Below are positions 1,892-60,945 of a DNA stretch of 64,000 nucleotides, piece by piece. How positions within the stretch are numbered: the stretch's first letter is position 1; each line of letters opens with the position of its first letter. The notes below the pieces were generated by a model. The model saw only the letters and a program-made list of their open reading frames with translations, had not been told where the DNA came from and did no database searches. The stretch comes from Cephalotus follicularis (taxonomy: Eukaryota > Streptophyta > Magnoliopsida > Oxalidales > Cephalotaceae): positions 429,426 through 493,425 of the forward strand of contig BDDD01000917.1 of the NCBI GenBank assembly GCA_001972305.1. Reading direction: 5' to 3'. Both the position numbers and the translations under genes were made by a program.

Positions 1892-2410
1892 CAGCCGACT
1901 GACAAGCAATCCAGTCGACTGCCCAAGGTTGAGTAGTCGACTGCCATAGGTTGTGTAGCCGACTGGTTCTTCAACCAAGTCCAGAAATTGCAGGAACACA
2001 TGATCCAGCCGACTACCATAGGGGTCCAGTCGACTGCCAGGCCAAGACAGCCGACTGCCACAGCGGTCCAGTCGACTGCCATGGCTGCACATTTCAGGCA
2101 GTAGCTTCTGTACCATTTTAACACCTCATCCAGCCGACTGAAGCAGGACACCAGTCGACTACCACGGGGTCCAGTCGACTGCCAGTGAATCCAGCCGACT
2201 GTCCACATTTGTGTAAATTCAGGCAGTAGCTTCTGTAACTCAATTTCCAGCTCCACAGCCGACTGGAACAGAGCAACCAGTCGACTACCATGTCCACCAG
2301 CCGACTGCCCAGAGGATGCAGCCGACTGTCCATCACCAACGGCTATATTCAAATATACGCACCATCAAATCCAGCTGACTGCCGTATAAATCCAGCCGAC
2401 TGGATTTGTA
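1892..2410 (+). repeat. Array of about 18 CAGYCGACTG palindromes in the S LTR
   Basis: Two groups (about 1892-2080 and 2125-2405) contain near-copies of CAGTCGACTG and CAGCCGACTG, starting for example at 1892, 1912, 1934 and 1956, so spaced 20-22 bp. CAGTCGACTG is a perfect palindrome and several copies extend to GGCAGTCGACTGCC. The spacer sequences differ, so this is not a simple tandem satellite. Two longer spacers are related to each other (GGCAGTAGCTTCTGTA). The core RYCGAC matches the DRE/CRT element bound by DREB/CBF factors. The array lies just upstream of the TATA box. Confidence 0.9.
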
Positions 2411-2444
2411 ACAGACTTCAAAAATAGATCCGTTGGAGCACAAG

Positions 2445-2451
2445 TATAAAT
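2445..2451 (+). promoter_or_regulatory. Probable TATA box of the S LTR
   Basis: TATAAAT occurs in the context CACAAGTATAAATGCC, about 715 bp into the LTR and about 40 bp after the last palindrome unit. A C-rich transcript start candidate follows within 50 bp. Position and sequence fit a pol II LTR promoter; no transcript data are available. Confidence 0.6.
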
Positions 2452-3359
2452 GCCAAAGTCGAGCATTCTTGAGGAGATCTCTTGCAATCAAAGTAAACAT
2501 TCTTTCTAGTTAACTCAAGCACAATTCCAAGCTTCCCAAAACATCAAAAGAGATCAATTCGAAGCAATCCTATACACTACAAAGCTCTCATTTTTACATT
2601 TCTTGTACACTAGAAGCTTTGCCCAAATTGAGCGATATTGTAAACAAATTCATTACGAATTTGTAATCTTTAAACACTTATTTCACACATAAACAAGAGA
2701 GGTTGTCTCTTGTTTTGCTTGGTTGGAGCAAACTTGTAATTCGCTTGGTTGGAGCGAAGTTCGTTGAAGCTCGGTTGGAGTTTCAAGCCTGGATTGGGGC
2801 ATAGATAGTGAAATACTCAAGGGAAGGCCTTGGGGAGTGGACGTAGGCGGTTTGCCGAACCACTATATATCCGTTTGCAATTCTCTCAACCCTACACTCT
2901 TTACATTTCCGCAATTGTGTGTTTGAGTTATTTGAATTGATTGTGGTAGTTTTGCTAGTAAATTTTTATAAGTCTATTCACCCCCCCTCTAGACTTCCTA
3001 TAGTTATAAAATACTTGAACAATTCATTTTCAAAAGGTATAACAATAAGTTTCAATCCTTTGATAATACACTGAGTTTTCATTGAAGAAAACAATAAAAC
3101 ACTTCATTTGTTCACCCTTAGAGAAAACAGTAAACATTTCAGACATTCTCACTTGGGAGAAATCTTTTCAATAACACTAAATCAAACAATAGATGTAATC
3201 AAACAGTGACAATGCACAATCGATTCAATGCATAGGAGGTATTGATCCTTAGAAGTATGAATCCAGTAATCCAATATGAATTCATGTTTATCAAGCATAA
3301 ACAGTTAGATACCATCCAATTTTAGTACTGTTTTCCTCTTAGAAGCTGAAAATTTCCTT

Positions 3360-3616
3360 AACCGTTGACAGTTTTTGCCTAAACATTGACAATTTGTAAC
3401 AAGCATCAACAGTTTGTCCTAACCGTTGACAGTTTGTATTAAGCGTCAACAATTTGTCCTAATTTTTGACAGTTTGTATTAAGCGTCAACAGTTTGTTTT
3501 GTATTAAGCGTCAACAATTTGTCCTAACCTTTGACAGTTTGTATTAAGCATCAACAGTTTGTATTAAGCGTCAACAGTTTGTCCCAGCCGTCAACCGTTT
3601 ATTCAAAGCGTCGATG
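3360..3616 (-). repeat. Downstream array of decayed GTCGAC units in the A 3' LTR
   Basis: Roughly a dozen units alternate CCGTTGACAGTTTGTCCTAA-like and AGCGTCAACAGTTTG-like copies at close to 20 bp spacing. Almost all show GTTGAC or GTCAAC in place of GTCGAC, as expected if methylated CpG had decayed. One copy reads GCGTCGATGG. The same array lies at 15840-16115 in the other LTR. Confidence 0.85.
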
Positions 3617-4366
3617 GTTTCTAGCTTCCAAGCAATTCAACAGAAACACAACATGTTCAATTCACACTTCAATCCATTCAATAACAACATGCATGCATGT
3701 ATAACTCAACACAACATGAAGTACATACTATATGTTCAAAATCATGTCATAAACCCCTACCTCAAATAGCTTTTCCCAGAATCAATTGCTTGATTCTTCA
3801 CTTAATAGCTCAAAGCATTCCAGTCCAACTCAATCTTCAATTTCCAGAGATCAATCCATGGTTTGCATGAATTCAGTAGATATACATAGACGAAATTAGT
3901 ATGCATATATCAATTGATTAATTGTACAACAATTAACCATAAACACAGAAGCTTACCAGGTAAATTCAAGCTTCAATTTTTCCAATTTGAACACTCTAGC
4001 TTCAACATGAAAAGTCCCAGCAATTTTCCAGAATATATTCTATCCTTTCAACGTATTCTAAAACTCAATTCACTCCCTCTATCACTGATATAAAGGGTTC
4101 AATTTCCAGGAATTCGTTTGATTCCCTTAACTCTAATTTCTAGCATTTTCTTTCTTTTCTTTCTCCACTATTTTTCTTTTTTACTTTGTTCTTTCTCCTT
4201 CTGTGTTGCAGGTAATAGGTGGAATGATTAACCTTGCATGTAGGTAGCAGCTACACACGTTTTTGGGCATCTTGGACACGTCCTAGAACACCTATCCATG
4301 TTATAAAGTTGTTACATGCCACCACTCTACATTAATCGCCTGCCATAGACACCTGTCATTGAGCAA

Positions 4367-5922: not shown

Positions 5923-7121
5923 TGTCACACCCCGCTTGCATTAACAACATACAACATGGCAATTTAACAGATATCCAGCTTATACAGAGAACGATAAAAT
6001 TTAAACCTTTTAAACAGACATCATCTAGCGGAAGCATTTATATATAAGCTGAAAGCAAACGGAACCATGCGTCCCATACCGCATGATTCCCACAACATCC
6101 ACGGTAAAACATAGTTAAAAAGCCCACAAGCGGAGCATGATCCAAAGTTGATACAACAACAATAGCAAAACATTAGTACATAAACCAAAGTACAACATGT
6201 TCGCTACACTGCTTTTACAAAACACATAAAGCAGAAAACTCCAATCACTTCACAGCCCAAAACAGCCATGCTCGGCAAGGTCCAAAATGCAGCATCAATC
6301 TGCAACAGTAGAGGGTTAGCCTTTGTCCTCACTCGGCCAAAGTCATAAAAACAACACAACATTAATAAAACCAAAGTATGAAAGCAGCATGATGCAGTAC
6401 ATACTATATCTCGATGCATATATATAAATATAGATATGCATATGCAAAAACACGATGTCACGTTATCACCGAAACCACGGTGTCACAATATCACAATGCA
6501 CGGTCTCAAACAAGTCCAAAGGACTACACAATACTCGGTTCACGGTACACGGTGGGTACGAAGAGCGTCGCCAACTCCTAGCCCCAACGTCGTACATCCC
6601 GACATCGGCCCCGAGTCCGGACGACACGAAGCTGGTCACAATACAGTAAGTCACCCAGCCAACTCCTGGCCCCTGAGTCGACCAGACCACTAGTCATCGC
6701 TGGCATCTCCGCCATGCGACTAGTACGACCACAATCGAAATCACAATCAGCAATCACAGTCAAGCTCAATCACAATCACAATCATCTCGATGCTCAAAAC
6801 AGTTTTCCAAGTAGTTTATAAAACAAAATACCTGAAAAAAAACTCATTTTCTCGATGTCATGATTCACGGTTCTCAATATCACAAAACTCAGTTCACGTT
6901 GTTTTTGGAAGTCATTTTCACGGTTCGAAACTATATATTTCTCAAAACATATAATTTCGTGTAAAATAATGATTTTTCATTCACTACAATGCACTTCCAG
7001 AAATATGTTATAACAGTTTAAACTCAATAATCACAATGCTCAAACAGTTTATAAAGCTTCATGAAGCAAAACATCACAATACACGATGCATACATATGTT
7101 CACGGGCGAAACAGGCCCCCA

Positions 7122-7412
7122 ACAGTCGGCTGCCCACCCTTGGCAGTCGGCTGTCCCCCTCAAAGTAGTCGGCTGCCAGACCCAGGCAGTCGGCTATACA
7201 ACCAGACAGTCGGCTACCCACACTCGACAGTCGGCTGTCATCCCTGACAGTCGGCAGTCCACACCCCCACAGTCGGCTGTTGACCTACAACAGTCGACTA
7301 AACAACCTCTGCAGACATTTTTTTGGAAACGAACGTGGCCAGTCGACTGGCCTCCCTAGAACAGTCGGGTGGACCCGTTTGCAGTCGACTGCCCAAGGTG
7401 GGCAGTCGGCTG
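7122..7412 (-). repeat. Downstream palindrome array of the C 3' LTR (about 13 units)
   Basis: The plus strand reads CAGTCGGCTG repeatedly, with CAGTCGACTG and CAGTCGACTA near one end; in C's sense this is CAGCCGACTG. Successive spacings are close to 20, 21 and 24 bp. The array lies 0.80-1.09 kb after the LTR start. Apparent open frames across it only translate the repeat and are not genes. Confidence 0.9.
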
Positions 7413-7937
7413 GATTCTGCAGCAGGTGTAAAAACCAGCTGCTAAAACAGCCACAATCACACACCCAACACAACCCAAAATGACATATTTATGCACATAC
7501 ACGTTCCAAACTCACAATATAACATAAACATGCATTTTATTTCATCAAAAAATTGTCAATTCAAATTATGTTGAAAAAACGACTTCCCCCTACCTTAGAA
7601 CTCCAAGTTAGGAGTTGCAATTAACCTCTTTATGTCTAAATCCGAAGCTCTTGCAACCCCAACACGTCCAGCAACCCTCACAGGTCTGGATTGTCACTAC
7701 CAAGCCTCCAAGCTTTCACGGTTCCAACACACGAGCTCCGTAGCCTCAACACACACACACTTCCACTCTCAATCTCACAAGCACTCTTGGAAAACACAAA
7801 GAATGATGGAGAAAGAAGAGAGAAATGCTGAGTTTTAAGGAGAAACCCCCGGCCCCTCCTCTGCCATTTCCAATAAATCCAAAACACTCCTCCTTTTTCC
7901 ACTGAAGGTAGACAGCACGTGGGTTGTCTGGCACATG

Positions 7938-8070
7938 GCAGTCGACTGCCTTGGCTTGGCAGTCGGCAGTTACTTCCGACACTCCCACCAGCCGGCTGCC
8001 TCCTCTTAGCTGCTGGCTGCCACGCCTCAGCAAGGGTCTAGTCGGCTGCCTCCCTGTGGCAGTCGGCTGC
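7938..8070 (-). repeat. Upstream palindrome array of the C 3' LTR
   Basis: About six units (CAGTCGACTG, CAGTCGGCAG, CAGCCGGCTG, AGTCGGCTG and variants) lie 145-275 bp after the LTR start, in a GC-rich setting and upstream of the leader. CAGCCGGCTG and CAGTCGACTG are both perfect 10 bp palindromes. Confidence 0.88.
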
Positions 8071-8213
8071 CCCTGCACAAAAACACACAACAACACACTT
8101 TCTTGCAGCATTTCAACATGGGAAAGAGGGAAAACACGATTCTCATTAACACAAGGTGTAAAATTACATTGGAAAAGCAATATTACACATAAATGAAAAT
8201 CATGGGCGTCACA

Positions 8214-8228: not shown

Positions 8229-8258
8229 AGGAATTTCGTCCTTGAAATAAAGGCGGTA

Positions 8259-12405: not shown

Positions 12406-13615
12406 CTGCTGCCACACCCCGCTTGCATTAACAACATACAACATGGCAATTTAACAGATATCCAGCTTATACAGAGAACGATAAAATTTAAAACTTTTAA
12501 ACAAACATCATTTAACGAAAGCATTTATATATAAGCTGAAAGCAAACGGAACCATGTGTCCCATACCGCATCATTCCCACAACACCCACGGTAAAACATA
12601 GTTGAAAAGCCCACAAGCGGAGCATGATCCAAAGTTGATACAACAACAATAGCAAAACATTAGTACATAAACCAAAGTACAACATGTTCGCTACACTGCT
12701 TTTACAAAACACATAAAGCAGAAAACTCCAATCACTTCATAGCCCAAAACAGCCATGCTCGGCAAGGTCCAAAACGCAGCATCAATCTGCAACAGTAGGG
12801 GGTTAGCCTTTGTCCTCACTCGGCCAAAGTCATAAAAACAACAGAACATCAATAAAACCAAAGTATGAAAGCAGCATGATACAGTACATACTATATCTCG
12901 ATGCATATATATAAATATAGATATGCATATGCCAAAACACGATGTCACGATATCACCGAAACCACGGTGTCACAATATCACAATGCACGGTCTCAAACAA
13001 GTCCAAAGGACTACACAATACTCGGTTCACGGTTCACAGCACACGGTGGGTATGAAGAGCGTCGCCAACTCCTGGCCCCAACGTCGTACATCCCGACATC
13101 GGCCCCGACTCCGGACGGCACGAAGCAGGTCACAATACAGTAAGTCACCCAGCCAACTCCTGGCCCCTTAGTCGACCAGACCACTAGTCATCGCTGGCAT
13201 CTCCGCCACGCGACTAGTACGGCCACAATCAAAATCACAATCAGCAATCACAGTCAAGCTCAATCACAATCACAATCATCTCGATGCTCAAAACAGTTTT
13301 CCAAGTAGTTTATAAAACAAAATACCTGAAAACAAACTCATTTTCTCGATGTCACGGTTCACGGTTCTCAATATCACAAAACTCAGTTCACGTTGTTTTT
13401 GGAAGTCATTTTCACGGTTCGAAAGTATATATTTCTCAAAACATATAGTTTTGTGTGAAATAATGATTTTTCATTAACTACAATGCACTTCCAGAAATAT
13501 GTTATAACAGTTTAAACTCAATAATCACAATGCTCAAACAGTTTATAAAGCTTCACGAAGCAAAACATCACAATACACGATGCATACATATGTTCACGGG
13601 CGAAACAGGCCCCCA

Positions 13616-13904
13616 ACAGTCGGCTGCCCACCCTTGGCAGTCGGTTGTCCCCCTCAAAGTAGTCGGCTGCCAAACCCAGGAAGTCGGCTATACAACCAGA
13701 CAGTCGACTGTCTACCAAGACAGTCGGCTGCCCACACTCGACAGTCGGCTGTCATCCCTGACAGTCGGCTGTTGACCTACAACAGTCGACTACACAACCT
13801 CTGCAGACATTTTTTTGGAAACGAACGTGGGCAGTCGACTGGCCTCCCTAGAACAGTCGGCTGGACCCGTTTGCAGTCGACTGCCCAAGGTGGGCAGTCG
13901 GCTG
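13616..13904 (-). repeat. Downstream palindrome array of the C 5' LTR
   Basis: Copies of CAGTCGGCTG and CAGTCGACTG (plus strand) lie at 20-24 bp spacing, matching 7122-7412. One stretch near 13700-13745 differs in unit make-up from the 3' LTR, so unit content has changed between the two LTRs of one element. Confidence 0.9.
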
Positions 13905-14397
13905 GATTCTGCAGCAGGTGTAAAAACCAGCTGCTAAAACAGCCACAATCACACACCCAACACAACCCAAAATGACATATTTATGCACATACATGTTCCA
14001 AACTCACAATATAACATAAACATGCATTTTATTTCATCAAAAACATTGTCAATTGAAATTATATTGCAAAAACGACTTCCCTCCACCTCTTTATGCCTAA
14101 ATCCGAAGCTCTTGCAACCCCAACACGTCCAGCAACCCTCACAGGTCCGGATTCCCACTGCCAAGCCTCCAAGCTTCACGGTTCCAACACACGAGCTCCG
14201 TAGCCTCAACACACATACACTTCCACTCTCAATCTCACAAGCACTCTTGGAAAACACAAAGAATGATGGAGAAAGAAGAGAGAAATGCTGTGTTTTAAGG
14301 AGAAACCCCCGGCCCCTCCTCTGCCATTTCCAATAAATCCAAAAGACTCCTCCTTTTTCCACTTAAGGCAGATAGCACGTGGGCTGTCTGGCACATG

Positions 14398-14530
14398 GCA
14401 GTCGACTGCCTTGGCTTGGCAGTCGGCTGTTTCTGCTGACACTCCCACCAGCCGGCTGCCTCCTCTTGGCAGCTGGCTGCCACGCCTCAGCAAGGGTCCA
14501 GTCGGCTGCCTCCCTGTGGCAGTCGGCTGC
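14398..14530 (-). repeat. Upstream palindrome array of the C 5' LTR
   Basis: About six units (CAGTCGACTG, CAGTCGGCTG, CAGCCGGCTG, CAGTCGGCTG) lie 143-275 bp after the LTR start, equivalent to 7938-8070. Confidence 0.88.
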
Positions 14531-14673
14531 CCCTGCACAAAAACACACAACAACACACTTTCTTGCAACATTTCAACACGGGAAAGAGGGAAAACACGAT
14601 TCTCATTAACAGAAGGTGTAAAATTACATTGGAAAAGCAATATTACACATAAATGAAAATCCCGGGCGTTACA

Positions 14674-16115: not shown

Positions 16116-18026
16116 AGCGTCCCGGCAATTCAACAAAAACAGGGCATGTTCAATTCACACTTCAATCCATTCAATAACAACATACAGGCATGTATAACTC
16201 ATCACAACATGAAGTACATACTATATGTTCAAAATCGTGCCATAAACCCCTACCTCAAATAGCTTTTCCCAAAATCAATTACTTGATTCTTCACTCAATA
16301 GCTCAAAGCTCTCCACTCCAACTCAATCTTCAATTTCCATAAATAAATCCTTTGTTTGCATGAATTCAGTAGATATACATAGACAAAATTAGTATGTATA
16401 TATCAATTGATTAACCCTAACACAATTAACCATAAAACCAGAAGCTTACCAGGTATATTCAAGCTTTAATTTTTCCACTTTGAACACTCTAGCTTCAACA
16501 TGGAAAGTCCCAGCAATTGGCCAAAATATATTCTCCCCTTTCAATGTATTCTAACTCTCAATTCACTCCTTCTATCACTGATATAAAGGGTTCAATGCCA
16601 AGGAATTCGTCTTTGTAACGCCCGAAATTTTATAAATAATTATTTTAATATTGGCAGAGTGTATGGCCGTATTGAGTCAATGGAGTCCGAATCGATAAAA
16701 CGCAACGCGTATTGGAGCCGCAAATCATAAGGCCCAAAATGACTAATAAAGCCCATTTTTACTGCGCGACAATAAGGCCTTATGTTCGCATTTTTATTGC
16801 GATTATTTTGGTGGCTGTTTGGATAATTAATATCGCAAAATTTGGATTAAACGGGACCCAGACCTTAGTATTTGGGGTGGTAAATACTAAATAAGTGGCA
16901 AAAATTAAAGAAAAGAAATAAGAGAGACACTGGCACATAAGGAGCCCGTGCAGAATTAAGGAGAGATACGTGAGAGAGAGAGACATCGGGAGAGAAAGGG
17001 AGAGAGGGCCGTTGGTGCGCCGGGGAAGACGCCGGAGCTAGCCGCCGAACCAGGAAGAGATGGCGAACGGTCCAGACCCCCCAACCCGCCGGTAAGCTCT
17101 CCTCTTTTCTTCTCTTTCTTCTCTTTTTCTTCTCCCTAACGCCAAGCAACTGTGGGCATTAAGGAGCATTCCACCACCGGTTAGCATCGCAGGAAGGTCC
17201 GGTCTTCACCTAGGAGGCTGGCTACACCTATTTCAGTGGCTGATTTGGCGTCATTCGGCCGAAAATGGCCGGATTCGAATTGATGAGTCGACTGAGTGAG
17301 TTGACCCGCTCTCGCCTTTGACCGTGCGTTTAGCGCCGAGTCTTGGCGAGTTAAGTTCAAGGATGTGTTGACTTGATGATTGTGAGGCGTTTTAAGGTGT
17401 TAACCGGAGTTGTGGTTGACCAGTGAGTCAACTTAGTGAGTTGAACTCACCGGCCGGCCGTGACAACATGTTTTATGGTGAGTCACGGTGAGCCTCTGAT
17501 GGTTTTGAACATGTCATCTAATGTGGAACCTGTTTTTGGGTTTCGCCGGAGCTGAATGAGTTGGCCAGAAACTGGCAAAGGCTCCGATGGCTGCTGTGCT
17601 TGGTTTCCATGCGTGGAGTGTAACGGAAATGTGTTGTACATGCAGGGTAAAGGAAACGATCAAGGATAAATGAAACGATCGAGGATAGAGGATTTCCGAG
17701 CTTTACGAGCTCAGTTGCTAAGTGGTAGGTTATACTATTGCTTGCATTACATTCATGCATTCTAAATGATTATTTGGATTGATATGTGTACGAATTGTAA
17801 TTGTATGGAAGCATGATTGTGTATATATATATACGAGTATACAGATGGATATGTATATTGCATATGGCATATGATATAAGGGTTCGATATTGAATTAAAA
17901 GGAGATGAGTTCTTGCCTTCTCTTAATTCACGGGCTATGGGATGAATATTAAAAGGTTTTGAACTATTTTGGACATAGTTCCATTGATTTACGAACTCTT
18001 TCACAAACTGCATTTTCTATCAAAAC

Positions 18027-18241
18027 CGTCGACGCTTTATGCTTTCAAAACCAAACCCGTCGACGCTTTCATGTCTTAAACTGAGTAGTCGATGTTTTAT
18101 ACTTATGCTTTCTAAAACTGTCGACGCTTTTATGTGTTAAACCAAATAGTCGATGCCTTATGCTTTAAAACAAACCGTTGACGCTTTATACTTGTGCTTT
18201 TTCAAACTGTTGATGCCCGGGGCTAAGCATCGACGCTTAGT
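18027..18241 (+). repeat. Palindrome array of the B 5' LTR
   Basis: About eight units (CCGTCGACGCTTTATGC, TAGTCGATGTTTTATAC, TGTCGACGCTTTTATG, CGTTGACGCTTTATAC, ATCGACGCTTAG) are spaced near 29-32 bp, about three helical turns, rather than the 20-22 bp of other families. The array lies 1.4-1.6 kb after the LTR start. The matching array in the 3' LTR is at 24910-25125. Confidence 0.88.
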
Positions 18242-18923
18242 GCCCTGTTCAGCCCAAACACACCGTTTTACATGGTTTTCCATCCAAAATGGTTTTTATC
18301 TTCAAATGAATTCCATAGAAAGCCTCACTAAGGCGTTGTAACATATGGAATCCTTCTGTATCACATTTGTTTTCTAAATCGATGTTCAAGTGAAGTTTAA
18401 AGGAAAGTTCTCAATTAAAGAGTTTTACGCAAATGGTTTCTAAATGGTTTTCAAAATGGTCAGGATAGTTCCATTGGGATATCGAGACACGAATATCTTA
18501 TTTGGACTTCATCTTCATTGTTTTAGGGATTTCAAAATGGTCAGGTACTTCCATTGGGACATTTCGGCGCGGATACTCCCATTTGGACTTCGTTTCCATT
18601 CATTATAACTTCGATAGGGACCAACCAAATGATATGTGAAAAATTGATTACAAAACGGATTATGAACACGAAATGGCCATTGGATATGAAAAATGACTTA
18701 TGATTATGAAATGATCTTTATATGATTTGACGGATGTGGATCCTATGAGATCCTTTATGAAATGGTCCCTATCCTTTAAATGAATATATGTTATGGGTTA
18801 CGAGTATTACAAGGTACGACTATGATATATATTATTGTTTGAGACCTATGAGATAACCCATCCATAACCTACGTTTTCGTCGCGAGGATTATGGGTGTTC
18901 GATCACGTCATCCCTGGAGGTTA

Positions 18924-19042
18924 CTGGCGCCTACGGGTTCTGACTGTTTTTACGGCTTTACCACATACTACGAGTTCAGACCGTTTTTATGGCTTTGCCA
19001 CTATACTTACGGGCTCTGACCGTTTTTACGGCTTAGCCATGA
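18924..19042 (+). repeat. Tandem array (GTTCTGACCGTTTTTACGGC units) in the B LTR
   Basis: Three units, each pairing TACGGGTTCTGACCGTTTTT with ACGGCTTTACCAC, are spaced about 36-39 bp. A matching array lies at 25815-25925 in the 3' LTR. The unit contains a local inverted pair (ACGG and CCGT). Confidence 0.8.
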
Positions 19043-20117
19043 TGTGATCAGGATTATGTCTTCCCCACTTGGCTACGACCTCAAAAGGGTAGGTAGTCAG
19101 TGGTAGTACTATCTCAGGCTGGAGTGGCAGAGTAGTACACAGACCTATGGATTGTTTGGCACTACGCATGATGAATGATTGTTTATGGAGTGCCTGCAGG
19201 CCTATGGCCTTTTACGTGATTAGGACTAGCCCAGTATACCACTGCTCAGGGACATTTGGAATACTGACGCTATGCCCAATTGTCATTTATGCACACGACA
19301 TGCCACTTATATATTATACTATTGCACGCATATCACCATTATGCTGATGCACTACATGCAATACATTGATATATTGTTACACGCGTATCACTATTATACT
19401 GTTGCATGCATAGCATAGTATACCTACTCGACATCATGTCGCTGGCCCATTTCCCATGTATGCGGAATGGGTCAGGCCCAGGTACAGGTGATGGACTACA
19501 GTGAGGTAAGCTGAGAAGGACGGCTTTTCTATAACATATTTTGTTAGCCAAATGTATATGGAGTTGTATGTATTTGGATTTGCTTATATGAGTTGTATAT
19601 GAGAGTTGTATAAAAGGGGCCTCACGTTTATGATTAAAATGTATTGAAATATAAGGCTTGTTATGTATAAGGATTGTGAAAAGGAACCCTATGTATTTGA
19701 GACAAATATAAAGATGTTATAGTTATCTTTTATTCAGCTATCGACCTGTCGTGTTATGGCAGTGCTTGTTTAATATATGTGTTGATGCAAAGGACATGGA
19801 AGGGTCCACATATTGTGATAAATTGCTGATTCCTCCTTCGGGAGTGTGGTTGTTAAGGGCTGAGCCCAAGATATAAAATGTGTTTTCCTTTACAGGGGGT
19901 TTAGTCCTATAAACGAATACTTCATGCCGAAAATTTGGGAGATTTTAAGAGTTAGTTTTTATTTGGATTGATTAATTCCGTTGTTGTAATACGATTGTTT
20001 AAAGTTTAAAATTTGTAGCACTTTCTGGATAATGAATTACATGACTAAATGGACTGAAAGGAACGTATCTCATGCGTCGGATCGTGGGGGCTTACTCTCA
20101 CGGTTCGGGGCATGACA

Positions 20118-42004: not shown

Positions 42005-42160
42005 GCAGTCGACTGGTGTAGTAGACCAGCCTACTGGTTGACTGCGTATGGGAGCAGTCGATAGGTGGGATGAACCAGTCGACTGGCCAACTGTTGAGCC
42101 ATGAGATAACGATCTGCCAGGCCAGCAGCCGGCTGTTGGGTATGGACAGCCGACTGGATC
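42005..42160 (+). repeat. Upstream palindrome array of K
   Basis: Units AGCAGTCGACTGG, AGCAGTCGATAGG, CCAGTCGACTGG, GCAGCCGGCTGTT and ACAGCCGACTGG lie 150-305 bp after the LTR start, at roughly 20-40 bp spacing. Confidence 0.83.
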
Positions 42161-42982: not shown

Positions 42983-43095
42983 CAGTCGACTGTCGAAGGA
43001 AGACAGCCGACTACTCAATCGAAACAGTCGACTGTTGAAGGGTGACAGTCGACTGCCTGATGAACCAGTAGGCTGGTGGAAGGAACCAGACGGCT
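42983..43095 (+). repeat. Downstream palindrome array of K with a 21 bp step
   Basis: Six units in a row start about 21, 21, 21, 20 and 21 bp apart: CAGTCGACTGTCGAAGG, CAGCCGACTACTCAATC, CAGTCGACTGTTGAAGG, CAGTCGACTGCC, CAGTAGGCTGG and CAGACGGCTACTC. This is the most regular array here. Its wording GACTACTCAAT recurs in the downstream array of I (60874). Confidence 0.88.
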
Positions 43096-43100
43096 ACTCA

Positions 43101-44956
43101 TGACTAATTTAAACATTCCACAAAGGAAAACACAATTTAAACTCCACTTCGCTACCCAAAGCCCAACGATGACAATCCGCTGCATCAACCTGAAATGTAG
43201 GGGGTTAGCCTTTGTCCTCACTCGGCTAAGTAGAGAAAATACAATGCACTTCGGTACTCAATGATAATGAATGCACCATGAGGCAATACACGATAGGTAT
43301 ATACATATATATATGTACGTATATATGTATACAGGCCAAAAGGTACGACTATGCCAAGTGGCTATAACCATACAAATTATCAATCAGGTTACTAAGGACC
43401 CATCAATCCAGTCAAACATGTCACAGAGGACAAATCAATCCAATCCAATACAGTCATGCCACGACGGACAGAACAATCCAATACAGTCAAACATGTCACA
43501 ACGGACAAACAATCACTAAGTCAATTGATCATCAGTCGATCAGTCATGCCACAAATGACAACACTCTAAACGGGGATGCTTCCACTCTATGTTTAGCACC
43601 CGGTCACTTCCACTATATGTTTAGCAACCAGGTTACTTCGGCTCTCCGTTTAGTAACTGCACAACAATCAATCAGTCACATCGGACAAACAATCTATCAA
43701 TCATGTCACATTGGACAAACAGTCCATTCATCATGTCACATCGGACAAACACTCCATTCAGGGATGCTTCCACTCTGTGTTTAGTAATTCGGTTACTTCC
43801 ACTCTACGTTTAGTAACCACTGAATGTGGGAGTCCCTAGCTACTTCCACTTTGTGTTTAGTAGCCTGGTTACTTCCACTTTGCGTTTAGTAACCATTGTA
43901 CGGGAAACCCCAGCTGTTTCCACTCTGTGTTTAGCAGCCAACACATGTGAAATTCCTAGTTACTTCCACTCTGTGTTTAGTAACTAATGCGAAATTCCCA
44001 TCACAATCCATCAATCAATGATGCTAACCAGCCCCGAGCTAGGAAAGCCCATGGCTAACCATCCCGTGGTGCTAGGAAAGCTCAGCAATCAATCAATCCA
44101 GTCAATTATGTTTCAACTAGTCTATATTTCCGTAAACGCTTGAAATCATATTTATACATATAGATGTATACAAAACAGTCCTTTCAAAAATAGTCATCAA
44201 GTAATTTATGTAAAATAATGTACTTGCCAAAACATATTTATTCAAAATATATAACAATCCTTTGAAACCCCATTTTAGTCTTTTCAATATAACATTTCAT
44301 ACAAAATATTTGTTATAACAAAACCATAATCCCATTGACTAAAATGATAAACACTTTAGCAATTATATATATTTCAATCCATAACAATATCCAATGCAAA
44401 CATGTGCTCAAAATGTAAACGTGCTCTAGTCGCGTCAACGTCTCATCCCTTCGGCGTTGACCCTCAAGGCATGGACCACTAAGCGTCGGCGCTTATCCCC
44501 TTGGCGTCAATGCTTTGAGGTAGGAACCTCAGGCATCCACGCTACACGTGTCCATTCACACACAACGAATCATGGCGTCGACGTTTTTCCAAAGCGTCGA
44601 CGTTTATCATGAAAATAGAGATCATTCTCCGTATAACAGTCCATAACGTCGACGCTTCTTTCCTAAGCGTCGAAGGTTAGGTGAACCAAAACACGGTTTC
44701 TTCAACACGTCTCAAAACCAATAGAATTCAAAGCGTACAACACATGCCATTCAATCCGCAATCATTGTAAAACGTAATATGCATAACATATTAACAATTC
44801 ATAGCAACCCTAACACCAATCACATGATCCATAACCCATGCATTTCATCAAATGAACACTCATTACAATTGAACTAAAAGATGCATGTAAAAATCCCCTA
44901 CAATTACCCCTACCTCTGATTCCAAGTTAGGAATCGCAGTCCACCTCTTCAAGGTC
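43101..44956 (-). mobile_element. D2: right LTR of D, inner piece
   Basis: It aligns with D1 from 37623 onward and carries the same arrays: TTCCACTCTGTGTTTAGTAA units at 43560-43990 and GTCGAC units at 44430-44690 (GGCGTCGACGTTT, AGCGTCGACGTTT, CGTCGACGCTTC). It is interrupted by E after AGGTC. Confidence 0.85.
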
Positions 44957-44960
44957 TGAT

Positions 44961-45012
44961 AAGCATAAAAATGTGTGATTTTAATGATTTATTTATTATA
45001 TTTTTATGCTTG
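44961..45012 (+). repeat. 12 bp inverted repeat at the E LTR start
   Basis: AAGCATAAAAAT near the LTR tip is followed about 30 bases later by its exact reverse complement ATTTTTATGCTT, giving a possible hairpin. It is conserved in all three family copies (31334, 44961 and 51362). Confidence 0.85.
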
Positions 45013-45999
45013 GAATAGACTACTGTGGTGGTGTTTATTTGATTTTCAGATATTATTTAATTATTGCGGAATAAAAGAAAATAAAGCTAAAACGTTACTT
45101 TTCGAGTTAAAGTGGTTTGAAGTCAACGATAGGTAAAAGAATGCACCCACTTAAGCGAGAGAAGTCAAAATTTAAGGCTCGGAAGATATTGAATATTGAG
45201 CTCATTTTTTTCATAAAATTAATTCGAGCACTTTTAGTTCTTGGGCCAACTAATTTTGAAAATCCGGAGAAGAGATATTGCAAGAAAACAAATGTTGAAA
45301 CATTAAAGCCTATTGCTGACATCAAGATGACATCAACTCTCCATATTTACAATTCTCTTTCACGCCACAACAATTCAAGGCCATGCAATTGATACATCAT
45401 GCATCCATCAGCAGCCCATGAAGCCATGAAAACATGCAATCCATTTTCATATCTTCAGCCCATGCGCACATCTTCAGTCCATGCGCATTATGCATAAGAA
45501 GGCCATGCATCAAATCTCCTACATCCAGCAAATCAACCCATCAGCGCCTCATGCAATAAGCAACGTGCATGCAGAATCCATGCGCATCAAAGCCCATGCA
45601 CGCAACCAGCATCCAACACGATAGGGATCCACGTTTTAATAAATTGTCTTAGGCCTTTTGTCGGTTGTGGGCATATATATATATACTGCATAAAGACAAT
45701 TTGAGATAGAAGAATTAAAGCAACGCAATTACAGAAGGCGCACGGCAGCCGACAGTGGAAGGATGGGGAATTTATTGAAGATTATTGTTGCCTCCATTGT
45801 CATGTCCGGCTAAGTATTTTAATCCCTAGATGTAGATGAACCTATGTTATATATATTTTTCAGTTTTTGGTTTCAAGTTTAATTGCATGTTTGTGAGACA
45901 CTTTTTCTTGTTAATGTAGTGACAACATTGATGAGAATAATTTTTAATATATAAAATCTGTGTTAATGACATGTAATATTTTTCTGTGTGATTGAACCA

Positions 46000-46190
46000 A
46001 TGTCAGTCTTTAACCAATCAACCTTTTGACAGTATCAAGGTGTAAGGATAGGTTGTACCTAGGCTAAATCACTAGTTTGCTGTATTAATCAAAGACAGTC
46101 TTTAACCAATCAACCTTTTGAGAGTATCAAGGTTTGACATGATAGGTTGTACCTAGGTTAATTCGGTAATTTTCTGCGCTAAACTGAAAC
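46000..46190 (+). repeat. 94 bp unit, two copies (E 5' LTR)
   Basis: The unit begins GACAGCCTTTAACCAATCAA and includes GATAGGTTGTACCTAGGCTA. Starts are near 46002 and 46094. The 3' LTR has three copies. Confidence 0.87.
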
Positions 46191-46571
46191 TTGTGCCATG
46201 AATTTGAATATATATATACATGCGGGGATTCTCACATCTACGGGATTGATGTTTCATATTATTTTTCTTATTTTTCATATTATTTTTCATATTTATTTAT
46301 TTTGTTAGTTTACGTTAGATATTTAATTTGAATTGTTTCGTTTTTCATTAAATTAGTTTAATTCAAAACCAATCATCTTTTCAATTTAATTATTTGCATT
46401 GCTAGCTTAGATTAAATTAATTTAGTATTTTTTATTTCTATTTAGTGACATCCTAGGTTTATTTTTATAGCATCTCCTTTCAGCTCTTCGTGGGAACGAT
46501 CCCTACTTCCACTTACTATATTGTTAGATTAGGGTCATTTTGATTCGGCCTAACGACACCCATCAAAATTT

Positions 46572-53065: not shown

Positions 53066-54373
53066 TGGTCCACAGCCCCGAAGACGCTCTTTATTCACAC
53101 TGCATATACAACACGTTGTCATTACGATCAACATACACAAAACATTGCCGTCACTGAAACGCCGGCCGGATTCCGGCCAACTCATCCAACGTGTGCAACA
53201 CCCATAAACGGGTTCCACACTGAACGGTCTACTCAGAACCGCTCAAGACTCATCGTGAATTGGCGCCGAACGCCGTGTCACTGGCGGTAGCGAGTTGCGA
53301 CTCACTGAGTCAACTCGTTCGACTTCCACCACTTCGGCCACCACCCCAAAATGCCACAAAATAAACAATCCTACGCGTCACTGCCCAAGACTCACTGAGA
53401 CTTGGCTTCAAACGCCGTGTCTCAGGCAGTAGTGAGTCTACTCGTTGAGTCGACTCTACCGAGTTATTCCGGACGATTCCGGCCAAAATACGCCTCAATG
53501 GTGTCAAAATTGCCAGAGCTGGCCTTTTACACCAAAACCCACTCCATCCGCGACACTAACGGCGTTGAAAAACAGACTGTAGAGGCGCATAGTGACAGGA
53601 AGAGGAGAAGAAAAATAAGAGAAAATAGGTGGATAGGGAAGAGGTTACCGTCAGTCAGAGCGCCTGGGTTGCTCGCCGTCCTCTCTTATCTCCAGCGACG
53701 TCTCCAACGCTCTCTCTCTCTCTTTCTCTCTCCCACTCTCTCACCTCTGTCTCTCTCTTGGGTCTCTTTTCCTTACATGGACGAGCTATGCGCCCATGTC
53801 TTTTTTTTTCCTTTATTAATTTGATTCCCTTATTTCTTTATTAATATTTACCACAAAATATTAAGCCCTGGGTCCGGATTATTCCGCGAATTGCGATATT
53901 AATTAATCCAGCCGCCACTGAAATAACCGTAATAATAATGCGAACATTTGGCCTTACTGTCGCGCATTAAAAATAGGCTTTATTAGCCATTTTTGGAAAC
54001 ATAATTACGGCTTCAATTCGAAATGCCTTGAACATTTCCTTATCATTCCTTATTGCAGCGACAGGTCTGGCATGCACGCTATGCTAAAAGACCACGTGGC
54101 AGTCGACTGCCTTCCCACAATAGTCGACTGCTTCTACCAATAGTCCAGTCTGTCATTTCTCTTAACAGTTGTCTGGTTCTATTAAGGCTCCAGTTGACTG
54201 TTTCTCCCTCCAGTTGGTTGCTTCCCTATTTCTTCACACCACAACTTTCCTTAAAACAATTCATTCAAGCCTTAACATTACACAGTGAACAAATCCATAA
54301 TTCTCATTAATTTAATGCATAATTTACATCGGGAATTACAATATTACATTTGACAAAACTCCCAGGCGTTACA
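53066..54373 (-). mobile_element. D2: right LTR of D, outer piece
   Basis: It resumes with TGGTC after E. The first 190 bp match D1 (39485-39672); the rest is the LTR start half, which D1 lacks. On the minus strand it starts TGTAACGCCTGGGAG. It has an upstream CAGTCGAC pair (54093-54130, AGGCAGTCGACTGCC and ATAGTCGACTGC), a stretch aligned with the B LTR (53830-54000), and a CT/GA leader (53700-53760). It is flanked by TATTA. Confidence 0.85.
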
Positions 54374-55081: not shown

Positions 55082-57513
55082 TGTCATGCCCCGAATCGCG
55101 GGGAAGCCCCCAAGGTCCGACACGTGATATTCAATCCATTCAATCAATCTGTACATATCATACTTCAAAAGTACGCTACAATTTAAAACTTTAAATACCA
55201 TATGAATGCGGAAGATAAACATCAATATTTGAAGATAATCCCGACCATGTCCATAACATCAACATACATATATTAAGCGTAGCCACAAGCCGGCAGGTCA
55301 AAAGCTGAAGTACAAATGTCTCTTATAAATCCAAACTTATACATAAGGTAGATAAAAAAAAAATCTAAACCGCTATCCAAAATCTATTAGGGATATCAAA
55401 TCCATCTCGAGGTGCTTCACTACGGTGCACCATCGGTACCTGTACCTGAACCTGACCCATTACGAGAATGGGTCAGCAACCAATGACTGTGTAGGCTATA
55501 CTGTCTGCTATGCATGCAACAGATATAACATATATATATATGCATGACATGTTATATGCATGAAAGCCAACTGCGGACAACCTCAGTATATCAATCGTCC
55601 CTAAGCGGTGGTATACTTGGCTACTCCTAAACCCATCAAGGGTCATAGTACTACAGACACTCCATAAGGGCAATCCATAACCATCCATAGGGGGCAATCA
55701 ATCCATAGGGTCAAGTACTTCTCTGCCACTTCGTCCTGAGAAAGTACCTACATCGTTTGTACACTCTCCGTGCCATTGCTGTATGGAGCATAGGCTAACA
55801 CCAGCCACATAATCCATACCATACCGTAATGCTACTCCCGAGCGTACCAGCCCACACAATAATAGAGATCTCTGTGAGCTAAGGCATGTCTGTAAGTATA
55901 CCATACCATATCCATCCACAATACGGTGATTGCTCAAGTCACCCAAAAAGGAAGGATTCCATAACCATAATATGTGACGCCTACATCCATAATTCTGTAT
56001 GACGGGGATGAAGATTATGAATGGTTTATCCCGTAAGGTCTCAGCCATAACAATCCATCAATCATGGCCATACCATGCCCGTAACCCATAACCATATTTC
56101 CATTTAAAAGATAGGACCTACCACAAAGGATCACATAGGATCCATCCATCAAAACCATTTTAAAAGCCATTTTTCCATAATCATTTTCCATAACCATTTC
56201 TTGGTCCCTATTGGAGTTTTAAAACAATGGAGTGAAAGTCCAACTAGGATATTCTCGTCCATATGTCCCAATTGAGCTATTCTAACCATTCTTGAAAACC
56301 ATTTGTATAAAACCCTTTTGTTTGATTTTCTTTAAAGTTTCATTTGAAAGTTGATTTGGAAATCAAAAGTGTTAGAGGAGGATTTCCATAGCCTAATAGG
56401 CCTTAGGGAGGCTTCTTATGGAATCCAGTTGAAGATAAAACCATTTGGGATTGAAAACAGTTTAGTTTGGCTAAAACAGAGGCTTTAGGCATCAACGCCT
56501 TAATGCTTAGGCGTCGACACTTAACGTCTAAGTATCGACGCTTTGCTCTAGGCGTCGATGGTTAAAGCAGTATGCCTTAAGCATCAACGTGTGCACATAG
56601 CGTCAATCGCTTACACCACATAAGGCCTCGACGCTTTAGCCAAAAATGTCGACGCTTATGCCCATCTTCCTTTACGCGTTAACACGTTGTGCATAAAAAT
56701 GCGAAGAAACAGAGAAGGTGTTGATGCTCAAACCTAGGCATCAACACTTTGCTCACTGAAGAACACCTCGACGCGTACAAAGAACACGTTGATGCTCTGG
56801 GCAGCTGTCAACACTGTAAAATCGATCAGAACTCATTTAAATGTTTAAAATTCGATTCAAAGGAGGATGCAACCTCCAAACATTGAATAAAACTCAAAAA
56901 CAGCTTTGAAACCATTTTAATCCATTCCCATAACCCATAGATTGAGAGAAAATGGAAATTAGGTAAAAATTCCCAATTCTCAAATTTCCCTCAAATCCCC
57001 ATTTCAATCAATTATAACCCATACCTACTACCGTAAACCATCCATCTAACGTATATACAACTATCCATAACCATACCATCATGTAAAAAGCATCACAATA
57101 TGGAGATCAAAGCATATGTAGAACCTACCTCAAATTTTGCTAAGAACAGAGAATATGTTGTTTAAAACTTCGTTCTGCTTCTCCCTTCAGGTTCTATACG
57201 CTGCCACGATCCCAAAGACACCATGTTTGCTTGATTTTGCCTACGCTCTCTCTCTAGCTCACTCACTATCTCTCTAGAATGGAATGAGAATGAAATGAGC
57301 TGAGCCGCCTACATATAGAAATAGGCTCCCTTTAGGCAAAAAACATATAAGTTACGATCAGGTTCTACTGAGCCTCCACTACCCATAAACAGACATAGAA
57401 TTGGAAAATAGTCTATATGATATATAATACATACCAACCATCAATACAATATGTGTACGATACCATATATAAACACATACAATTTCGCACATATAAAAGA
57501 TATGGGGCTTACA
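55082..57513 (-). mobile_element. J: solo Ty3 LTR with intact target repeat
   Basis: The LTR is 2432 bp. On the minus strand it starts TGTAAGCCCC and ends CGATTCGGGGCATGACA. A perfect 5 bp target repeat CCCCA lies on both sides (55077-55081 and 57514-57518). The end half resembles the B LTR, for example CCCATTACGAGAATGGGTCA at about 55457-55476. It has a palindrome array at 56484-56815 and a TATA-type run with a GA leader (minus strand) near 57315-57240. No internal sequence is present, so it arose by recombination between two LTRs. Confidence 0.9.
56484..56815 (-). repeat. Palindrome array of solo LTR J
   Basis: Units GCATCAACGCC, GGCGTCGACACTT, GTATCGACGCTTTG, GGCGTCGATGG, GCATCAACGTG, GCGTCAATCGC, CCTCGACGCTTTAG, TGTCGACGCTTATG, GTTGATGCTC, GCATCAACACTTTG and CCTCGACGCG lie mostly 21-27 bp apart. 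They lie 0.70-1.03 kb after the LTR start. Confidence 0.85.
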
Positions 57514-57518
57514 CCCCA

Positions 57519-59120: not shown

Positions 59121-59766
59121 GTTAATTCATTTCATTCAAATTGTATCCAAGCCTAATTAGTGCATCTAAGTTGTTTGAATATTGATTTGCTTGAATTGAT
59201 TGAGAAAATGAGTTAGTTTTTGATGATTTTGGTACTTGGTTTTGTAAGGATACCATGCCAAATTTTTACAAGGTTTGCTTATATATAAGATATATGAGTA
59301 TGGTTGGAAATAGAACGAGGGAAGTATATTTATCTTTAGTGACGATCATTTCGCAAGGTGTATAGTTAAACATTTAATGTTCTTTGACTTTTCATTTATT
59401 GGTGACAATTTTGTAAGAATTTGATTTTTACAAGATAAGATTTACTTTAACAATGTAATTTTTTGCCAAATGGGAGACTTAATCCTAACCATCGAGTAAC
59501 ATGAGATAGATGGTGGAGATTTAGCCTTGGTTTAAATTATTATACTAAAGAGAATTTAATCTTAGCCATTCATTTTGATAATTGAAATGAAAGGTTAGAA
59601 TTTTTTCTTGTTTTTCCATAAAATCATGAGATGATTAATTTGATAAAGTTTAGGATTTAGGGTTTCAAACCCTAAACCCTAACTTTAGGGTTCCAAACCC
59701 TAATTACCGAAATTGATATTTATTTTGCGCCTTGCTTTGTGGTGGACCAAATATGAATAGTATAAC
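59121..59766. other. AT-rich stretch with a telomere-type motif; no gene seen
   Basis: It has no LTR ends, ORF of note or repeat array. It carries two related segments around AATTTAATCTTAGCCATTCA and GACTTAATCCTAACCATCGA (59465-59490 and 59553-59575), and the TTTAGGG-type motif at 59655-59703. It could be unique flanking DNA or a decayed element. Confidence 0.5.
59655..59703. repeat. Interstitial telomere-type motif (TTTAGGG/CCCTAAA)
   Basis: TTTAGGGTTTCAAACCCTAA and ACCCTAACTTTAGGGTTCC-type copies stand in both orientations within 50 bp, four copies in all. The motif is the plant telomere unit, and AAACCCTAA is also the telo-box of plant promoters. Confidence 0.8.
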
Positions 59767-59980
59767 TGTAATGACCGTAATTTTTAAATTCTATGTATAT
59801 TATATAATTAATGAATAAAATATACTTTGAATTAAAATGTAATGCTTAATTGTCCTTTTGATTGAGCTAATTGCTGTTATTGAATTGAATTGAGGGTTTA
59901 ATTGAATGGAAATTGTACTAAATTAAGTTAAATTTAAAGTTGGTGGAATAAAGTTTAAGAAATCAAAGTTTTGGCGCTTG

Positions 59981-60080
59981 ATAGTCGACTGTCGCAGAGG
60001 AACAGTCGACTGTAGTAGAGAAACAATCGCCTGGTCTCGTAAAGGGACAGTTGACTGTTAGAGGAAACAGTCTACTAGGA
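59981..60080 (+). repeat. Upstream palindrome array of I
   Basis: Units ATAGTCGACTGTC, ACAGTCGACTGTAG, ACAATCGCCTGG, ACAGTTGACTGTT and ACAGTCTACTAGG are spaced about 20-24 bp, 215-310 bp after the LTR start. Confidence 0.85.
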
Positions 60081-60803
60081 GAGCTCAGACATGTGTCTGT
60101 GCATGGCAATTGAAAATAGAGCAAGGCGTGAATCATAGGACAGGTGTTAGGCGACAAATGAACGTGGCACAAACGTGTCACCAGCTGCTCACAATGGATG
60201 ACTTAGTGTCTTCTGTGTGTCCTGAGCTATGTAAACTGTAAAGAAGAAACAAAACAATGAGTTAGGGAGAAGGAAGAAAATGTTGGAACTTTGAGTTAGA
60301 GGTATTTCTGAAGCACTGATACAAAATTCCTTATATCAGCTATTGCATGAGTGAATTGAGAGTTAGAAATATCACTGAAAAGAGAGAGATCATCTACTGC
60401 ATTGAGTGTGCATGCTAAATTAGAGTTTCAAGGTGGAGTTGGAAGCTGAAGGTTTGAATGGTAAGCTACTGGTTTAAATTCAGTTGCTGATTAAGGTTAA
60501 AAAGTTATGTATAGCTACTGATTTCGTATGTATACCTACTGTTAACATGCACATATAGTTAAATTCTGGAGACTATTGAAGTTGATTGGAATTGGTGGAG
60601 TATTGAAACTCAAAAAGAAGAATCACTCAATTGATTCTGGGATGGCGAATTGAGGTAGGATTTATGATATTATTCTAAAAATATAGGATTCATATCGTGT
60701 TGATATGGTTTGCGTTTGATTGCATGTTGAATTGGAGTGAATTGAAATGTGATAAGCATGCTCTGTTTTACTGTTTTCTTCTGGAAACTGATATTCTGGG
60801 GAA

Positions 60804-60945
60804 ACAGTCGACTGTTCATGTTAACAGTCGACTACTGAATGTATACAGTCGACTGTTCAGGATTAACAGTCGACTACTCAATAAGGACAGTCGACTGTGC
60901 AAGGAAATAGCCGACTTATAATAGAAATAGTCGACTGTTAGGGGA
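60804..60945 (+). repeat. Downstream palindrome array of I with a 20-21 bp step
   Basis: Seven consecutive units lie 20-21 bp apart: CAGTCGACTGTTCATG, CAGTCGACTACTGAATG, CAGTCGACTGTTCAGG, CAGTCGACTACTCAATA, CAGTCGACTGTGCAAGG, TAGCCGACTTATAATAG and TAGTCGACTGTTAGG. CTG and CTA endings alternate, hinting at a 42 bp pair unit. Confidence 0.9.

What the first reader, a model, noticed from the sequence alone, without database searches (positions are those of the whole stretch)
1892..60945. Shared arrays of GTCGAC-core palindromes in LTRs of many unrelated retroelements
Arrays of CAGTCGACTG/CAGCCGACTG or AGCGTCGACGCT units occur in S (Copia) and in A, B, C, D, F, H, I, J and K (Ty3). They are seen at 1892-2410, 3360-3616, 7122-7412, 13616-13904, 18027-18241, 24910-25125, 34875-35290, 38968-39235, 42983-43095, 44430-44690, 56484-56815 and 60804-60945, among others. 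Both flavours are palindromes on the same GTCGAC core, while the spacers between units are unrelated across families. E, of Athila type, lacks them. Conservation of a 6-10 bp core against diverged spacers in elements of different superfamilies points to a bound factor rather than simple repeat expansion. I do not know a description of this.
Basis: seen in the sequence. Interest (0 to 1): 0.9.

Follow-up and report, generated by a model that had tools for sequence, protein, structure and literature searches.

The report
Phased GTCGAC arrays in retrotransposon LTRs
In what appears to be the genome of a carnivorous pitcher plant, two very different kinds of jumping gene carry the same short DNA word in evenly spaced rows in their control regions, which suggests that both are switched by the same DNA-binding protein.

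Summary
The genome (Cephalotus follicularis by its proteins) holds 197,377 CAGTCGACTG (reversed control 939). 25,896 pairs lie exactly 21 bp apart, 5 at 16 bp. Of 25 sampled 10-kb stretches, 14 hold a core pair 19-23 bp apart; shuffles average 0.1. Units are alike across families (88%), spacers nearly random (32%; shuffled 25%).

Corrections. The array-bearing Ty3 LTRs are mostly relatives, and seven have array sites in corresponding places, so within Ty3 the arrays look largely inherited. S is a copia Sirevirus; palindromic repeated motifs in Sirevirus LTRs are published (PMC2829016). What I found undescribed is the same core and spacing in chromovirus-like Ty3 LTRs, and two flank types that both occur in both superfamilies.

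Also, the "palindrome" is directional: one-sided variants keep RYCGAC on the LTR's sense strand 50 times against 4.

Best reading: phased enhancer arrays for a host DNA-binding protein, possibly of CBF/DREB type (RYCGAC). No binding was tested. After insertion the units decay at least as fast as other LTR sequence.

The parts
1728..2999 (+). S 3' LTR (copia, Sirevirus), ends approximate. Its 5' LTR is L030:3967-5241, 96% identical
1892..2402 (+). S array: 17 cores, 10 GCCGAC and 7 GTCGAC, mostly 20-22 bp apart; last core starts 50 bp before the TATA-like box at 2445
2445..2451 (+). TATA-like box of the S LTR (another, at 2385, lies inside the array)
3368..3612 (-). C LTR ~20-bp repeat (reads TTGACGCTT on the LTR sense strand); not a GTCGAC array
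5923..8213 (-). B LTR (Ty3, chromovirus-like), arrays at 7941-8067 and 7125-7410
12410..14673 (-). B LTR, arrays at 14401-14527 and 13619-13902; initiator-Met PBS at 12405
16614..20117 (+). X LTR (Ty3, pol about 32% identical to B), type 2 array 18028-18234
23499..26986 (+). X second LTR, type 2 array 24912-25118
31087..31226 (+). H LTR (starts 30904), type 2 cores
33968..34086 (+). second H-type copy, type 2 cores
34881..35217 (+). G-like LTR, type 2 cores
37305..39672 (-). part of a G LTR, type 2 array 39021-39189
41852..43102 (+). J LTR piece (start motif only, end not found), type 1 arrays 42008-42154 and 42985-43053
43102..44956 (-). part of the other G LTR, type 2 array 44485-44653
53066..54373 (-). 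first part of the same G LTR (split by element E), type 1 pair 54102-54128: both types in one LTR
56513..56653 (-). X-like LTR, type 2 cores
59767..62274 (+). K LTR, type 1 arrays 59984-60010 and 60807-60935; other LTR L011:2867-5337, 90% identical
44957..46565 (.).

Best explanation
The arrays are cis-regulatory binding-site clusters in the upstream part of the LTRs. Shown: a 10-bp unit, sense strand CAG[T/C]CGACTG (type 1) or a looser (A)AGCGTCGACGCT(T) (type 2), recurs mostly every 20-22 bp, about two helical turns, with near-random spacers. In three Sirevirus LTRs (S, L024, L034) the array ends 50-92 bp before a TATA-like box; in S a small array also sits just before the env-like frame, and L024 has one after its pol. 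Seven related Ty3 LTRs have two array sites in corresponding places. Inferred: a host DNA-binding protein occupies neighbouring units on one face of the helix and drives (or keeps open) LTR transcription. Copia Sireviruses and Ty3 chromovirus-like elements both use it, so sites were gained independently at least once between superfamilies and then inherited. The sense-strand RYCGAC rule makes a CBF/DREB-type AP2 protein the leading named candidate (about 0.3); it does not explain the conserved CAG/CTG flanks.
For: Genome counts: 197,377 CAGTCGACTG, reversed 939; GTCGAC 849,481, reversed (CAGCTG) 231,366; 25,896 pairs at 21 bp (reversed 89) against 5 at 16 bp (reversed 0), the one other spacing that was answered; about 25 expected per spacing if sites lay at random. 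14 of 25 sampled stretches hold a 19-23 bp pair. Unit vs spacer identity. 88 of 143 gaps are 20-22 bp. Directionality 50:4 units; GCCGAC over GTCGGC in 12 labels, the reverse in none, 2 without either. Both types in copia (S; L024, and L034 by LTR similarity only) and in Ty3 (B, K, J, L012 and others; X, H, G). TATA-like box just downstream in S, L024, L034. PMC9138379 tables list the PLACE entries GTCGAC = CRTDREHVCBF2 (core CRT/DRE), RYCGAC = CBFHV, RCCGAC = DRECRTCOREAT. DREB1D sites mark plant LTRs in PMC11656987 passages.
Against: No binding, expression or chromatin data. In the Ty3 LTRs looked at, no TATA close behind the arrays was found; candidates lie hundreds of bases downstream, and two (L012, A) have none of the pattern. 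Gaps above 23 bp follow 10.5 bp only weakly (R 0.34, n 44), and 27-29 bp gaps are not rare. 4 of 16 LTRs examined are not enriched (C, E, L028, L016). Units in aligned LTR pairs differ slightly more than the rest (66/850 vs 1063/19766), so nothing keeps them after insertion. Spacers are a little more alike than shuffled ones, so some array duplication and shared descent exists. Labels in the direction test are not fully independent (S and its linker are one element; B and L014 are one family; several Ty3 LTRs are related). Type 2 shows no significant direction.
Confidence: 0.55

Rival explanations
1. The arrays are recognised by an element-encoded or host anti-silencing protein, as VANC proteins recognise short motifs arrayed in one orientation in VANDAL non-coding DNA; binding removes DNA methylation rather than activating directly.
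For: Same logic: dense short motifs, same orientation, a T/C variant position (passages of PMC5735166). CG changes between aligned LTR copies are rarer in units (30/136) than outside (219/572), p 0.0003, as if units were less methylated.
Against: I found no candidate protein. The Sirevirus env-like PF20167 protein gave no usable fold (mean pLDDT 36), and a genome search for that family did not complete. The Ty3 elements' extra coding capacity was not searched systematically. The two superfamilies would have to share one such factor. The CG comparison depends on how units were defined and is led by B (0 of 18).
Confidence: 0.15
2. The arrays act through RNA: self-complementary units fold into hairpins in LTR transcripts and feed small RNAs, as argued for maize Sirevirus palindromes; elements trim pairing by sense-strand T-to-C variants.
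For: Arrays fold better than shuffles (z -3.8 to -8.1 in 10 of 11; X -1.4) and sense RNA is weaker than antisense in 11 of 11; in all 10 arrays with GCCGAC the opposite orientation would pair better. The maize model is described in PMC5311732 and PMC10760457 passages.
Against: Hairpins do not require 20-22 bp spacing. The sense/antisense difference follows largely from the direction of the variant. In K the difference is under 1 kcal/mol. This may be a cost added to a DNA-binding role, not an alternative.
Confidence: 0.12
3. Neutral tandem-repeat turnover in related LTRs plus recombination between elements; no function.
For: Ty3 LTRs are related. Spacer identity within a family (0.39) exceeds shuffled (0.27).
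Against: Duplication copies spacer and unit alike, yet units stay 88% and spacers fall near random, also between copia and Ty3; spacing is held mostly to 20-22 bp; one-sided variants are strand-biased 50:4.
Confidence: 0.13
4. The shared word reflects a mutation bias, such as loss of methylated C at CCG and CG sites, that drives many sequences to GTCGAC.
For: CAGCCGGCTG, the possible ancestor, is also present (7,846 copies, reversed 133).
Against: CG decay would destroy GTCGAC, and decayed forms are rare (CAGTTGACTG 2, CAGTCAACTG 4, against 55 CAGTCGACTG in the window and L010-L037). Bias cannot set 21-bp spacing or one-strand variants.
Confidence: 0.03

Closest known systems
Sirevirus repeated motifs (RM boxes), Bousios et al. 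2010, PMC2829016 (section 9 and passages read)
   Same: Palindromic units, eight or more copies per element, clustered in the LTR upstream of the TATA, and again before the env gene. S shows this layout; L024 has the LTR cluster and one after pol (its env was not looked for). The Vitis RM, CGGTCGACCG, contains the same GTCGAC core.
   Different: Described as Sirevirus-specific after comparison with other copia elements. Here the same core and spacing are also in Ty3 LTRs. The CGG-CCG signature is absent. Directionality and 20-22 bp phasing were not in the parts I read.
Palindromes in maize Sirevirus LTRs and small RNAs (Bousios et al. 2016, Genome Res; not held, known from citing passages in PMC5311732 and PMC10760457)
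   Same: Palindrome clusters in the LTR regulatory region, linked to secondary structure and small RNAs.
   Different: Other motif (CACCGGACNNNGTCCGGTG); the passages seen report it for copia and also Helitrons, not for Ty3.
Heat-responsive elements in Brassicaceae COPIA LTRs, PMC5059998 (abstract and discussion read)
   Same: LTR families gain sites for one host factor repeatedly, partly by duplication.
   Different: Heat-shock factor sites in copia families; short clusters of nGAAn motifs, not arrays with 21-bp spacing.
VANC target motifs in VANDAL transposons, PMC5735166 (passages read)
   Same: Dense short motifs in one orientation, changing by tandem repeats.
   Different: DNA transposons with their own binding proteins, each for its own targets.
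CBF/DREB sites (DRE/CRT; RYCGAC)
   Same: Type 1 core on the sense strand is RYCGAC in 120 of 129 units.
   Different: Palindromic CAG/CTG flanks and 21-bp phasing are not part of that motif (recalled).

Membership tests
Sirevirus (element S) | Copia-type reverse transcriptase between the LTRs | tested here: met
   L010:1463-2419 matches PF07727 RVT_2 at 2e-17
Sirevirus (element S) | Palindromic RM cluster in the LTR upstream of the TATA | tested here: met
   17 cores at LTR positions 166-667, TATA-like box at 717
Sirevirus (element S) | Further RM copies upstream of the env-like gene | tested here: met
   3 cores at L010:2690-2735, PF20167 frame from 2844
Sirevirus (element S) | C-rich signal near the LTR 3' end and GGGGGAGATTG-type PPT junction | tested here: met
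Sirevirus (element S) | Several PPT copies in the linker | tested here: inconclusive
   AAAAAGGGGGAAG-like runs lie in the 61-bp repeat at 1382-1510 and a PPT at 1714; not compared with the published octamer
Sirevirus RM boxes | CGG-CCG signature | tested here: not met
   Core is GTCGAC/GCCGAC; Tnd-1 also lacks it in PMC2829016
Sirevirus RM boxes (Ty3 arrays) | Located in a copia Sirevirus | tested here: not met
   B, K, A, L012, L014 lie in elements with Ty3 pol; so they work like it, but are not members
CBF/DREB binding sites | RYCGAC core | tested here: met
   120 of 129 type 1 units on the sense strand; PLACE names seen in PMC9138379
CBF/DREB binding sites | Binding by a CBF/DREB protein | not testable with these tools
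   needs DAP-seq or EMSA
VANC-type anti-silencing targets | Element-encoded binding protein | tested here: inconclusive
   No systematic search; one candidate, PF20167, gave an unusable model

The most novel reading that the evidence does not exclude
One host DNA-binding protein family has been captured by two retrotransposon superfamilies in the same genome, through hundreds of thousands of phased, directional sites. Two site types that recur in both superfamilies mark two specificities (or a switch between paralogues), so the LTRs record an evolving contest with host regulation. The sense-strand T-to-C bias is a second trace, of selection against hairpins in the elements' RNA.
Probability: 0.3. 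Interest if true: 0.85.

Novelty: new variant of a known kind. Interest (0 to 1): 0.68.

Why it matters
It extends the Sirevirus repeated motif, described as specific to one copia lineage, to Ty3 elements in the same genome, with shared core and spacing. That makes an open question testable: whether such LTR arrays are binding sites for a shared host factor. The motif, its spacing and the strand rule of type 1 are exact enough to design a one-hybrid or DAP-seq experiment directly. With about 200,000 copies of one decamer, the host factor, if it exists, would meet very many transposon sites.

Tried and rejected
Tried without result: protein search with the frame across the S array (163 candidates, none with E up to 1). 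Viral-contig scan for a unit pair (1 hit, a single pair) and prokaryote scan for three units (4 bacterial tandem repeats): no relation seen. Chromovirus pol in viral contigs: none. Fold of the PF20167 protein: unusable. Fixed helical phase for longer gaps: weak. Post-insertion conservation of units: rejected. L020:4933-5042 as a third copia array was dropped from the copia claims: it lies 59 bp before a short S-like segment, unlike the others; it stays, labelled copia, in the type 2 logo. Genome counts of AGCGTCGACGCT, GCGTCGACGC, AAGCGTCGACGCTT and of pairs at 25 bp, and the PF20167 family search, did not complete, so type 2 has no whole-genome count.

Considered and rejected: mutation bias, simple repeat expansion, and 'unrelated' Ty3 families.
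Full report
What the window is. The window is G000:C917:429426-493425 of a 1.577-Gb assembly. A pol protein of the window is 89% identical over 91% of its length to a database protein (P0001), and a PF20167 frame is 90% identical to a Cephalotus follicularis protein. I therefore take the source to be Cephalotus follicularis (Oxalidales), the Australian pitcher plant (recalled). Naming the assembly is inference.

The observation. GTCGAC has the highest observed/expected ratio of all hexamers in the window (63, expected 5.5). The range 3360-3616 is a different ~20-bp repeat. Exact AGCGTCGACGCT occurs once.

Genome scale. CAGTCGACTG occurs 197,377 times, the reversed control 939; a first-order expectation from window composition is about 606. 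GTCGAC 849,481, reversed 231,366. CAGCCGGCTG 7,846, reversed 133. Exact CAGTCGACTG pairs 21 bp apart: 25,896, reversed 89; 16 bp apart: 5, reversed 0; about 25 expected at any one spacing if sites were placed at random. No other spacing was answered. In 18 sampled 10-kb stretches GTCGAC is the second most enriched hexamer (93 vs 13.9; first is CGACGC), and the commonest palindromic 10-mers after TA repeats are CAGTCGACTG (19) and GCGTCGACGC (7). In 25 sampled stretches (those 18 plus seven; 227,953 bases without N), 14 hold a core pair at 19-23 bp and 11 do not; 40 shuffles average 0.10, maximum 1. The sample was drawn among contigs 1-2500.

Which elements. S is a copia Sirevirus: LTR pair 96% identical (window about 1726-3000, L030:3967-5241), RVT_2 reverse transcriptase, an env-like PF20167 frame that seems interrupted by element A, GGGGGAGATTG-type PPT junction and a C-run near the LTR end. 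L024 holds a second Sirevirus (pol 70% identical to S over 309 residues). L034 resembles S only in a 179-bp LTR stretch. B, K, A, L012 and L014 are Ty3 elements with related pol. X is a more distant Ty3 element (pol about 32% identical to B). 'Chromovirus' rests on the SH3_Tf2-1 integrase end of B (PF24626), on matches of the others to that end, and on recall; I had no lineage reference set.

Ty3 relatedness. Ty3 LTRs with arrays mostly begin TGTAAYRCCCG-like and several end GGGGYRTGACA with an initiator-Met PBS. Their ends and other stretches align at about 60-75%. Core positions from the LTR start: B 147-268 and 772-1050, K 218-239 and 1041-1164, L012 143-219 and 1286-1390, A 176-411 and 1066-1309 (one-base variants included); J 157-298 and 1134-1197; L036 167-270 and 1330-1433, L025 194-242 and 1253-1355 (from, LTR starts by alignment to L012). 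G and X place the second site further in; for H and C only the first site was seen as GTCGAC-type cores. So in Ty3 the arrays look mostly inherited, while units and spacers changed.

Units and spacers. Across 105 type 1 units and 61 spacers from one LTR copy per element, unit identity between families is 0.877, spacer identity 0.316 (shuffled 0.252, maximum 0.268); S against Ty3 units 0.884, spacers 0.304; spacers within a family 0.391 (shuffled 0.270). Among 50 spacers of genome pairs on C1-C2, 36 are distinct; most have a near relative, and the mean pair identity is 4.52 of 11 against 3.55 shuffled. Neighbour gaps in 31 arrays: 88 of 143 are 20-22 bp; in a de-duplicated set over the window and L010-L037, 54 of 129. 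Longer gaps favour 10.5 bp only weakly (R 0.34, n 44). GTCGAC exceeds all 300 shuffles in 12 of 16 LTRs or LTR pieces examined; C, E, L028 and L016 do not. These 16 were chosen, not drawn at random.

Direction. Oriented by LTR or pol direction, 129 type 1 units (14 labels) give CAG[T59/C41]CGACTG. GCCGAC against GTCGGC is 44:1; 12 labels favour GCCGAC, none the reverse, two have neither. From the same table, 70 units carry RYCGAC on both strands, 50 on the sense strand only, 4 on the antisense only, 5 on neither; 50:4 has p 4e-11, but units within an element are not independent; the label test gives p 0.0005, and labels are not fully independent either (S and its linker are one element; B and L014 one family; several Ty3 LTRs are related). 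Type 2 (47 units, 10 labels) shows no significant bias (GCCGAC:GTCGGC 6:1, labels 5:1, p 0.22; GTCGAT:ATCGAC 7:4). For L019 and L020 the LTR alignment used covers the array itself; their direction also rests on a minus-strand PBS and, for L019, minus-strand pol.

Two types, two superfamilies. Type 1: copia S and its linker; Ty3 B, K, J, G, L012, L014, L019, L020, L025, L026b, L033, L036. Type 2: copia L024 and its linker, and L034 (by LTR similarity); Ty3 X, H, C, G. One G LTR has both (54102-54128 type 1; 44485-44653 type 2). Further variants, AGACGTCGACGTCT and GAGTCGACTC, occur in A, L018 and L019.

Promoter position. In S, L024 and L034 a TATA-like box starts 50, 92 and 78 bp after the start of the last core. 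In the Ty3 LTRs looked at no such close TATA was found; X has a good one 508 bp from the LTR end, far from its array; B, K, C and G have TATATA tracts about 425-560 bp from the LTR end; L012 and A have none of the pattern.

After insertion. In 12 aligned pairs of LTR copies (one, C, without units; H may be two separate copies), unit positions differ at 66 of 850 and other positions at 1063 of 19,766 (p 0.004, units slightly worse). CG sites changed at 30 of 136 in units against 219 of 572 outside (p 0.0003). So there is no sign that the host keeps the units; the lower CG loss is only suggestive.

RNA. 10 of 11 arrays fold with z of -3.8 or lower (X -1.4); sense RNA is weaker than antisense in 11 of 11 (K by less than 1 kcal/mol); in the 10 arrays with GCCGAC the opposite variant would fold better in all, and the all-GTCGAC version in 9.

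Literature. PMC2829016 (section 9 and passages) describes palindromic repeated motifs in 13 Sireviruses, in LTRs upstream of the TATA and before env, as absent from classic copia elements; Table 3 lists Vitis CGGTCGACCG. The maize paper of 2016 is not held. PMC5059998 (abstract, discussion) is a precedent for repeated gain of host-factor sites. PMC11656987 passages link DREB1D sites to plant LTRs, and PMC9138379 table passages name GTCGAC and RYCGAC as CRT/DRE and CBF motifs. My searches for such arrays in Ty3 LTRs or for this motif in LTRs, seen as listings, showed no paper on it by title or abstract; subscription journals are mostly not held.

Verdict. Real, very strong, genome-wide. The copia part is a known kind; the sharing with Ty3 elements, the 21-bp phasing, the direction and the two types across superfamilies are, as far as I could search, undescribed. 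A bound factor is the best explanation but untested.

Noticed in passing
L010:2690-2735: Three cores lie between the copia pol and the PF20167 env-like frame of S, as published for env-bearing Sireviruses; L024:6576-6676 has three cores after its pol.
   Followed up: partly
window 4725-8213 and 11134-14673: The B alignment runs past both LTRs into gag, so B looks like LTR-internal-LTR-internal, a recombinant tandem.
   Followed up: no
last 400-500 bp of several Ty3 LTRs, e.g. window 59767-62274: A conserved block GTGAGGACAAAGGCTAAC...TTTCAG, with variation and somewhat like splice signals, recurs in B, K, C, L012 and G; K and C lack the final AG.
   Followed up: no
window 3368-3612 and 15841-16093: C LTRs carry a ~20-bp tandem repeat reading TTGACGCTT on the sense strand, close to the type 2 right half without the CG.
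   Followed up: partly
L002:2950-3003, L003:7426-7481, L004:704-759, L005:4535-4586: Four bacterial genomes hold short tandem repeats with CAGTCGACTG about every 21-23 bp (the pattern allowed 19-23).
   Followed up: no
L026:4459-6796 and 7460-9794: Near-identical 2.3-kb repeats about 660 bp apart with type 2 cores and no match to the other LTRs used.
   Followed up: no
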